Source: Verrucomicrobiota bacterium
Lineage (GTDB): Bacteria > Verrucomicrobiota > Verrucomicrobiia > Opitutales > Opitutaceae
Assembly: GCA_030832235.1 (NCBI GenBank)
Contig: JAURJO010000509.1
Coordinates: forward strand, 1-35,972
DNA length: 35,972 nucleotides
Direction: 5' to 3'
The notes under the pieces are model-generated. The model ran no database searches and was not told the origin of the DNA. It saw nothing but the letters and a program-made list of their open reading frames with translations. A program made the position numbers and the translations under genes. Positions 2,647 to 5,600 of the stretch are shown here, one piece after another. Positions within the stretch are counted from its first letter, which is position 1, and the number at the start of each line of letters is the position of its first letter.

Positions 2647-5600
2647 TTGTCGCGCCTCGCCGCCCTCGGCGAATCTGACCGCCGCCGCATGAAGTTCCTC
2701 AACCCGCCGGCCCTCGCGCTGGCGGCGCTTTTCAGCGTCGTCTTCTCCCTGCCGTTCCTGCCCGCCGCCCGCATGCGGACGGACCGCTTCGTGCTGGAGG
2801 TGCGGCTCACCTGCCCGAAGGAGTCGAGCCTCCAGGTTTTTTACGACGACGGCCCCGGCTTTCGCGAGGAACTGACCACCGCCACGCCCCTGAAGGCCTC
2901 GTCGGCGGTCGAAACGTACACGCTCAATATTCCCGGCGGCACTTATCTCGCGCTCCGCATGGATCCGCCGGAAGGCGGCACCGCGATCACGATTCATTCG
3001 ATCCGCGTCGCCAACCTCACTGGAAAAACGATCGCACCCGTGAGCCTCGCTGGTTTCCAAGCGCTCCAACAGGTTCGATCCGTGCGATATGAAGGAGGCC
3101 GGCTGGCGATCGCTTCCGCGCCCGGCAGCGACGATCCGCAAATCTGGACCACGTTTTCGCCGCCGCTGCAGGTGCGACTGGACCCGAGGGACTTCCTTCG
3201 CGAACTCCCACCGTACGCCGCCGCCCTTTTCGCCGCGCTGGTCGCGATCCTGCTGCTTCTGGAAAAAGCCCCGGGGGTTAGTGCGTCGCTCGTGGTCGCG
3301 GCGCGTTCTTTGGCGACCCGCCCCGCTGCCGCCGTGATGCTCGCCGCCGCCGTGGCGGTCATCGCGAGCGCCTACCCGATCGTGTTCCTCGGCCGCAGTC
3401 ACGTTTCGCCCAACCTCGGCACCACGCTGCTCTACGACAAATTCCCCACGCTGCCGGGCTACCGTTCGAGCGCGATGACCGACCCGAAGCTGTCCGACGT
3501 CGGCGCCGTGATGTGGCAGCACGTCCCCTTCTCCGTCATTCAGTACCGCGCGCTGTCGCAGGGAGAACTGCCCCTTTGGAACCGTTACAACGCGCTGGGT
3601 GTGCCGCTGCTCGGCCAAGGCCAGTCGATGTTCGGCGACCCGCTCCATTTCCTTGTGATCGTGGCCCGAGGGGCCGCCTGGGCCTGGGACCTGAAATACC
3701 TGATCGCGAAGTGGCTCTTCGCGACCGGACTAGGGCTGGCCGTGCTCGCGTTGGTGAGGGAAGGAGGGACCGAGGGACGAAGGGACCAAGAGACAAAGGG
3801 ACCAAAGGACGAAAGGACTAACGGACTAAAGGACCAAGCGCGCTTGGAGGGCGGCTCCTGCGCCTCACTCCCTGATTCCCTCACTCCCTCACTCCCTCCG
3901 TCCGTTAGTCCCTTCGTCCCTTGGTCCCTCGGTCCCTTAGTCGTCGCCGTCGCGGCGCCGTTCATCGGCTTTTTCCTCTACCGGATCAACCACCCCGCCT
4001 ACTTCAGTCTCTGTTACGCCCCGTGGCCGCTCTACTGTCTGCTGCGCGTGGCGAACGCGGCCGACCGCCGGGGCGTCACGCTGTGGTCGGCCGGGCTGCT
4101 CGTCGCGAACCTGGCCCTGATGAACAGTGGGACGGTCAAGGAGGCGTACATGCTGCTGCTGAGCGTGAATTTCTCCGGCCTTTGCGTGCTGCTAGCGGCG
4201 CAAGGCGGCTGGCGCGAAAAGTTATCAAAGCTGGGGACGCTCGCGTGGTTCGGTCTCCTCTTTGTCCTGATCACCGCGCCGGTGTGGAGCACGTTCCTGA
4301 ACACCCTGCGCCAGGCCTACACGGGCTACAACGCCGCGAGCGCCTACCAACTGCAGCCGTCGCTGTTGCTCGGCCTCTTCGACGAGATTTTCCACCGCCC
4401 GCTGCTTTCGCGGAACCAGGTCTACGCGCCGTCGCTCAACTTTCTTCTTCTCGGCGGCCTGCTCCTCTTCCTCGCCACGCTGCGTCGCCAGTTCCACCGG
4501 CCGGCCGTGATGGCAATCGCCGCGAGTTCCCTTCTGCCGCTGTCCCTCGCGTTCGGGTTCCTCTCACCCGAGTGGATCGTCACGATCCCGTTCCTCAGCA
4601 ACATCGCCCACCTCGACAACACCTTCTCCTGCGTGCTGATCGTACTCTGGGCCGTACTCGCAGGGGTAGGTTTCTCGGAAGCCGCCGGGCGCCTGGGCAC
4701 CCGCGAGGGCCGGGACGACCTGATCATCGCCGGGCTTCTCCTGTTCGGATTGGTCTTCGCGTGGCTCGCCTTCGGCCACGCCGCGCACCGCCCGATCTAT
4801 GGCCCGGTCTTCACCGTGAACCAACCCGGGCGCACGCTGCTGATCGACCCCTTCATTCTCGATTACCTGATCGTTCTCCTCGCGGCGATCACCGCTCTCG
4901 CGGTCGCGGTGCACCTGGCCTTGCGGCGCCGTCGGCTCACCGCGGCCACCGGCCTCGCCATCGCCGGCTGCACGATTATCCTCCTTTGGCGCCACGGCGC
5001 GCACGACTCCGCGCTGGGCTTCGAGGACTTCGTGAACCGTCCGACCCGCCGGGCCGATTTCCACGCCCGCTCCGAGGCGATGGAGACCGCACGCGCCGCT
5101 CAGACCGACGCCCCGGCACGCGGTTACGGATTGCATGGCAACTTCTTCCCCGGCTGGACCGGCGTCTACGGGTTGGAAGGCGTGCACGGGCCCGACGCGC
5201 TGGTGAACCCGTTCGTGCGCGAACTCATGGGCGCCTCGGGCGTCACCCGCATGTGGGATTGGCGCTTCTACGCCGAAGCGCGCGAGGCCGGGAACGTTCG
5301 ATCGTTTTTCGACGCCCTGAACGTGCGCCACTATTTCGATCTCGCGAGCGACCAGGGCGTGCTCGGCCGCGCCCTGCGCCTCATGCGCACCGCGGATCTC
5401 GATGTCTACGAGAGCCCCACGGCTTGGCCCCGCGCGTTCTTCTCCGATCGCGTTGTGACCTACGAGAAGCCGGCTGAGCTCGCCGCGCGTTTTCGCACGT
5501 CAGCCGGAAAACCTTTCGTGGCGATCCAGGCGGAAGACCACCCCTCCCAAGGCGCACTCTCCGCCGTGCCGCGCGCCGAAACCGGAGCCACCGTCACTCC

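What the first reader, a model, noticed from the sequence alone, without database searches (positions are those of the whole stretch)
3766..3944. In-phase 8-bp repeat arrays in inverted orientation form a large hairpin inside a coding gene
Direct reading shows nine contiguous octamers on the left (consensus RGGACNAA) and ten on the right (TNNNTCCC), each in strict 8-bp phase. They flank a short non-repetitive centre containing a perfect 14-bp palindrome, CCAAGCGCGCTTGG (3834-3847). 3798-3829 pairs with 3897-3928 (28/32 identical when inverted). Octamers are degenerate at fixed positions (5-7) and conserved elsewhere. This is not a slipped microsatellite, because neighbouring units differ while the same variants recur in the opposite arm. 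It looks like a structured element, not low-complexity DNA.
Basis: seen in the sequence. Interest (0 to 1): 0.8.

Follow-up and report, generated by a model that had tools for sequence, protein, structure and literature searches.

The report
Tandem-word hairpin element inside membrane gene
A stretch of 8-letter DNA words repeated in one direction and then in the opposite direction sits inside a membrane-protein gene; it is the gene-less form of a hairpin element seen at many other places and in other phyla, whose larger copies carry one small gene best known from insertions in ribosomal RNA.

Summary
In detail: window 3757-3944 holds ~10 octamers (RRGACNAA) facing ~10 reverse-complement octamers around a short centre, within a YfhO-like gene of an Opitutaceae genome. 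One sub-claim fails: the arms share the word, not an ordered set of variants, so they are not an inverted duplication. Arrays of this word always face inward (29 convergent, 0 divergent pairs). In a related genome the word follows the same degenerate grammar in every array. Long loops between such arms hold a PF05635 (S23, 23S-rRNA intervening-sequence protein) gene in 4 of 6 cases. Conversely, S23 and GxxExxY genes are flanked by inverted tandem words, the word differing by locus, in Opitutales and other phyla. The window holds a second member: a broken GxxExxY gene between ftsY and nusB with 22/24-matching inverted arms. Best reading: an ORF-less IVS-like hairpin element, tolerated in frame in a variable loop. 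How the word arms grow is unproven. This octamer is not generally enriched across phyla; it is amplified in particular genomes.

The parts
3757..3837 (+). left arm: tandem octamers RRGACNAA
3864..3944 (-). right arm: the same octamer, reverse-complement orientation (TTNGTCCY)
3834..3847 (.). perfect 14-bp palindrome CCAAGCGCGCTTGG at the base of the apical loop
3838..3863 (.). centre/loop, no ORF
2647..5910 (+). host gene: YfhO-like membrane protein, 1087 aa; the arms are translated in frame as about 60 residues between two hydrophobic segments
28694..28717 (+). left arm of a second element of the class, AATCTGGGAATCAGGAAATCAGGA
28736..29097 (-). frameshifted GxxExxY (TIGR04256) remnant in the loop of the second element
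29102..29125 (-). right arm of the second element, TCCTGATTCCCTGATTTCCAGATT (22/24 complementary to 28694-28717)

Best explanation
The feature is an ORF-less member of a class of small hairpin insertion elements. In this class two inward-facing arrays of a short tandem word (7-9 nt; here RRGACNAA) form the stem. The loop is either empty or holds one small gene: PF05635/S23 (the protein encoded in large 23S rRNA intervening sequences) or GxxExxY. SHOWN: the inward orientation, the word grammar, S23 in the long loops, inverted words around S23 and GxxExxY genes, preference for gaps between genes, persistence in orthologues, and empty sites. INFERRED: the element behaves like an rRNA intervening sequence placed in mRNA. 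It inserts where a hairpin is tolerated (between genes, or here in a length-variable loop of a membrane protein), is transcribed, folds into a stem and may be cut by RNase III. INFERRED, weaker: the arms grow word by word from the two flanks toward the centre rather than by copying one arm into the other.
For: 29 convergent and 0 divergent array pairs (two-sided p=4e-9). Of the 6 convergent pairs with loops of at least 250 bp, 4 hold an S23 ORF (L149, L188, L126, L193). Loops are 0.4% of 1.1 Mb yet hold 4 of 6 S23 hits, p=4e-9. From the other direction, 57 S23 loci of Opitutales share 22.7 inverted 7-mers between their flanks against 9.3 for mismatched flanks (p=1e-4), with no signal 500 bp further out. 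For 26 S23 loci of other phyla it is 29.7 against 5.9 (p=1e-4), and 30 GxxExxY loci 17.3 against 8.8 (p=0.003). Arms are the GGGAC word itself in S23 loci L322, L331, L333, L334, L340, L350 and L188. Empty sites occur in L277/L278; L268 has the same hairpin two units shorter. Between window and L268, substitutions fall on word positions 1, 2, 6 (15/53) rather than 3, 4, 5, 7, 8 (7/90), p=0.0014, with no clear codon-position bias. G019 sites avoid long frames: 8 of 37 against 28.8 expected. The outer array edge is sharper than the inner one (p=0.016 and 7e-4).
Against: The window copy has no ORF, so its link to S23 rests on shared architecture and on the same word flanking S23 elsewhere. Most GGGACNAA arrays have short loops or no detected partner. 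The word does not follow the S23 tree (9 changes for 11 rows), so one mobile element carrying a fixed word is unlikely. No target-site duplication, transposase or RNA processing was shown. The other-phyla S23 set was chosen from genomes known to hold the word.
Confidence: 0.62

Rival explanations
1. Neutral slippage: a chance short palindrome seeded two microsatellite-like arrays that expanded by replication slippage; S23 and GxxExxY elements merely prefer hairpin loops as landing sites.
For: Tandem octamers of other words also occur: the reversed control pattern is in 18 of 199 genomes against 9 for the real one, and control patterns occur in viral contigs. Arm length differs by two units between window and G012. 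Related short-period arrays often adjoin.
Against: Adjacent units are no more alike than distant ones. In G019 variants are not array-specific (0.38 within, 0.38 between). Substitutions respect the word grammar. Orientation is always convergent. In some other genomes (JAUIIM, JAKALP) variants are array-specific, which does fit slippage.
Confidence: 0.22
2. Word arrays are binding sites of a protein or RNA; the word is kept by recognition and the hairpin is incidental.
For: Positions 3, 4, 7, 8 of the word are nearly invariant in 253 G019 words while position 6 is free; substitutions avoid the fixed positions in the window orthologue.
Against: The word differs from locus to locus within a genome and is not tied to the S23 lineage; the gene tolerates complete absence.
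Confidence: 0.1
3. It is only a fast-evolving low-complexity protein linker; the DNA pattern is a by-product.
For: The loop is hypervariable in orthologues and always in frame.
Against: The same words occur between genes with stop codons (N=T), and codon positions show no clear bias in the arms (9, 5, 8 changes).
Confidence: 0.04

Closest known systems
Intervening sequences (IVS) of 23S rRNA genes with the S23/IVP ORF (Coxiella, Leptospira; PMC4990558)
   Same: Hairpin formed by complementary ends; loop either carries S23 (PF05635) or is ORF-less; sporadic distribution at sites that tolerate it.
   Different: Not in rRNA; arms are tandem short words, not a unique stem; RNase III excision not shown; the loop can also hold GxxExxY.
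Rickettsia palindromic elements (in-frame palindromes in coding genes; from own knowledge)
   Same: Palindromic insert translated in frame in a tolerant loop.
   Different: No conserved element sequence: arms are tandem words and loops are unrelated.
REP/REPIN-RAYT palindromes (GTAG and CGTC families; Opitutus terrae is rich in GTAG repeats, PMC3733652)
   Same: Many dispersed hairpins, mostly between genes.
   Different: Far longer, no GTAG or CTAC in 3750-3950; no Y1 transposase was looked for.
Heptamer STRR / microsatellite arrays (from own knowledge)
   Same: Short tandem units.
   Different: Inward-facing pairs, genome-wide word grammar, cargo genes in the loop.
DGR accessory protein Avd (relative of PF05635; PMC10053308)
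   Same: Same four-helix-bundle family as the loop gene.
   Different: The variable word position is not adenine-specific; no reverse transcriptase was tested.

Membership tests
23S rRNA IVS | terminal complementary ends forming a stem | tested here: met
23S rRNA IVS | inserted in a helix of rRNA | tested here: not met
   lies in a YfhO-like gene; no Rfam match in the window
23S rRNA IVS | S23 ORF in the loop (large IVS only) | tested here: not met
   window copy has a 26-bp centre; met for class members L149, L188, L126, L193
23S rRNA IVS | cut out of RNA by RNase III | not testable with these tools
   needs RNA
REP/REPIN | GTAG or CGTC tetranucleotide at the stem end, 20-40 bp | tested here: not met
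   no GTAG or CTAC at 3750-3950; arms about 80 bp each. CGTC was not scored as a tag
REP/REPIN | RAYT transposase in the genome | not tested
   no Y1_Tnp search was run
Rickettsia palindromic element | in-frame palindrome inside ORFs | tested here: met
Rickettsia palindromic element | shared element consensus over its whole length | tested here: not met
   only the word is shared; loops are unrelated by inspection
Slipped microsatellite | neighbouring units most alike; array-specific variants | tested here: not met
   for G019; array-specific in some other genomes
MITE | target-site duplication and cognate transposase | not tested
   no pair of close strains with and without the element was at hand
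DGR | adenine-specific variation | tested here: not met
   A at word positions 4, 7, 8 is nearly invariant

The most novel reading that the evidence does not exclude
The inward arrays are products of templated word addition to the 3' ends of a DNA break, telomerase-like: each broken end is extended by repeats of a degenerate word and the ends are then joined, sometimes capturing a small gene. S23, a relative of the Avd partner of DGR reverse transcriptases, could be the accessory of such an enzyme. This would explain the fixed orientation, independent arms, genome-wide word grammar, sharp outer and blurred inner edges, and the lack of a link between word and protein lineage.
Probability: 0.1. 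Interest if true: 0.92.

Novelty: new variant of a known kind. Interest (0 to 1): 0.6.

Why it matters
S23 (PF05635) has been known for decades from rRNA intervening sequences without a function, and GxxExxY is an uncharacterised family that appears in only two papers of the library searched. If the class holds, both are cargo of one kind of hairpin element built from tandem words and sitting mostly between genes. That gives a concrete, testable setting (RNase III processing, insertion, word recognition) for two unknown protein families and explains a puzzling kind of repeat in environmental genomes.

Tried and rejected
Covariation or inverted-duplication origin of the arms: rejected. A universal cross-phylum vocabulary: the genome-contig scan found GGGACNAA x3 in many phyla, but in 199 genomes of the Acidobacteriota centre's phylum the word is no commoner than its reversed control (9 against 18 genomes); viral contigs 12 against 5 and 3. 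Copy-the-previous-unit growth: no adjacency signal. Word specified by the S23 protein: not supported. DUF559 as a further loop gene: too rare to test. Known RNA family or tRNA in the window: none. Literature by literal octamer, GxxExxY, PF05635 and repeat terms: nothing found on these arrays.

Full report
What is there. The window is a contig of an Opitutaceae (Verrucomicrobiota) genome bin of 4.0 Mb (homologues named Opitutaceae). At 3757-3837 about ten octamers of the form RRGACNAA run head to tail; at 3864-3944 about ten copies run in the opposite orientation. The pattern is far beyond chance. It lies in frame in a 1087-aa YfhO-like membrane protein gene.

The gene's relatives. In homologues the segment between two hydrophobic stretches (AKWLFATGLGLAVLAL and APFIGFFLYR) is hypervariable. 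Many carry peptides that are the octamers read in frame (RDQGTKGPKDQ ... PLVPWSLGPLV); others have a few residues. At DNA level L268 (G012) has the same hairpin two units shorter, with flanks 90% and insert 83% identical. L269, L270 and L192 have shorter hairpins of the same word, and L277/L278 are empty. The insert is therefore dispensable and old in this clade. Between window and L268 the substitutions fall on the free word positions 1, 2, 6 (15/53) rather than 3, 4, 5, 7, 8 (7/90; p=0.0014), while codon positions show no clear bias. The sample is small.

Other copies. The own genome has eight two-unit matches. Fourteen of forty relatives have them, all in the genus, with 118 in G019 and almost none for the reversed control. 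In G019 the arrays obey one grammar everywhere (position 3 G 252/253, position 4 A 250/253, positions 7-8 A 97%, position 6 free), and variants are no more alike within an array than between arrays. Neighbouring units are not more alike than distant ones. Arms of one hairpin are no more complementary to each other than to arms of other hairpins. So the arms are independent sets of the same word, not an inverted duplication. Orientation is fixed: 29 convergent, 0 divergent pairs. G019 sites avoid long open frames (8 of 37 against 28.8 expected), so the in-gene position of the window copy is the exception.

The loop gene. Two long loops read directly as a four-helix-bundle protein, PF05635, the 23S rRNA intervening-sequence protein S23. 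A systematic check found S23 in 4 of the 6 convergent pairs with loops of at least 250 bp, although loops make up 0.4% of the DNA searched. Starting instead from S23 genes, nearly every locus showed tandem words upstream and the reverse complement downstream, but the word differs: GTAGCGAG between gyrB and gyrA, GTTGAAAG and GTTGAGAG before a permease gene, GGCACAAA, AGTCAGG, CAGAATTC and others (gene names here are my reading of the flanking sequence). The matched-against-mismatched flank test is strong and vanishes 500 bp out. It holds for S23 loci of other phyla and, more weakly, for GxxExxY genes. The GGGAC word itself flanks S23 in Deltaproteobacteria, Phycisphaerae, Bacteroidales, Acidobacteria and Opitutaceae loci, yet does not follow the S23 tree.

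A second member in the window. Between ftsY and nusB a frameshifted GxxExxY gene (28736-29097, minus strand) is flanked by AATCTGGGAATCAGGAAATCAGGA and a 22/24-complementary copy.

Interpretation. The window hairpin fits as the ORF-less form of this class, in the same relation as short ORF-less and long S23-bearing intervening sequences in rRNA. The IVS facts used here (hairpin ends, S23 ORF, RNase III excision without ligation, role unknown) are from PMC4990558. Processing of the mRNA hairpin is inferred. For arm growth, the fixed orientation, independent arms, uniform grammar and sharper outer edges favour growth from the flanks inward, but slippage with selection is not excluded, and in some genomes variants are array-specific.

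Limits. Nearly all genomes used are draft bins. The other-phyla S23 test used genomes picked for the word. Orthologous loci within the genus are not independent, which affects the counts, although the mismatched control includes the same relatedness. In a sample of 199 genomes of another phylum the word was no commoner than its reversed control, so amplification is a trait of particular genomes.

Noticed in passing
window 28694-29125: Broken GxxExxY gene between ftsY and nusB, flanked by 22/24 inverted arms: a second hairpin element in the window.
   Followed up: yes
L203, L208, L209, L213, L214: S23 gene with GTAGCGAG arms next to gyrA, in several genomes with the end of the upstream gene (gyrB-like) before it: a recurrent, vertically kept site.
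   Followed up: partly
L198, L200, L204, L212, L224: S23 gene with GTTGAAAG/GTTGAGAG-type arms between a binding-protein gene and a permease gene in several genomes.
   Followed up: no
L185 3740-4024: Words change step by step along one array (GGAACGGA, GGAGCGGA, GGGGCGGA, GGTCAGA, GGTCAGT).
   Followed up: no
S23 and GxxExxY loci: The 5' arm copy of the shared words is mostly purine-rich (47 of 50 Opitutales S23, 16 of 24 other-phyla S23, 21 of 29 GxxExxY).
   Followed up: partly
L018, L155-L188 (G019): One genus mate (record JAUSID01, Opitutaceae bacterium E14_metabat.bin.223) has 118 two-unit matches while several sisters have none.
   Followed up: partly
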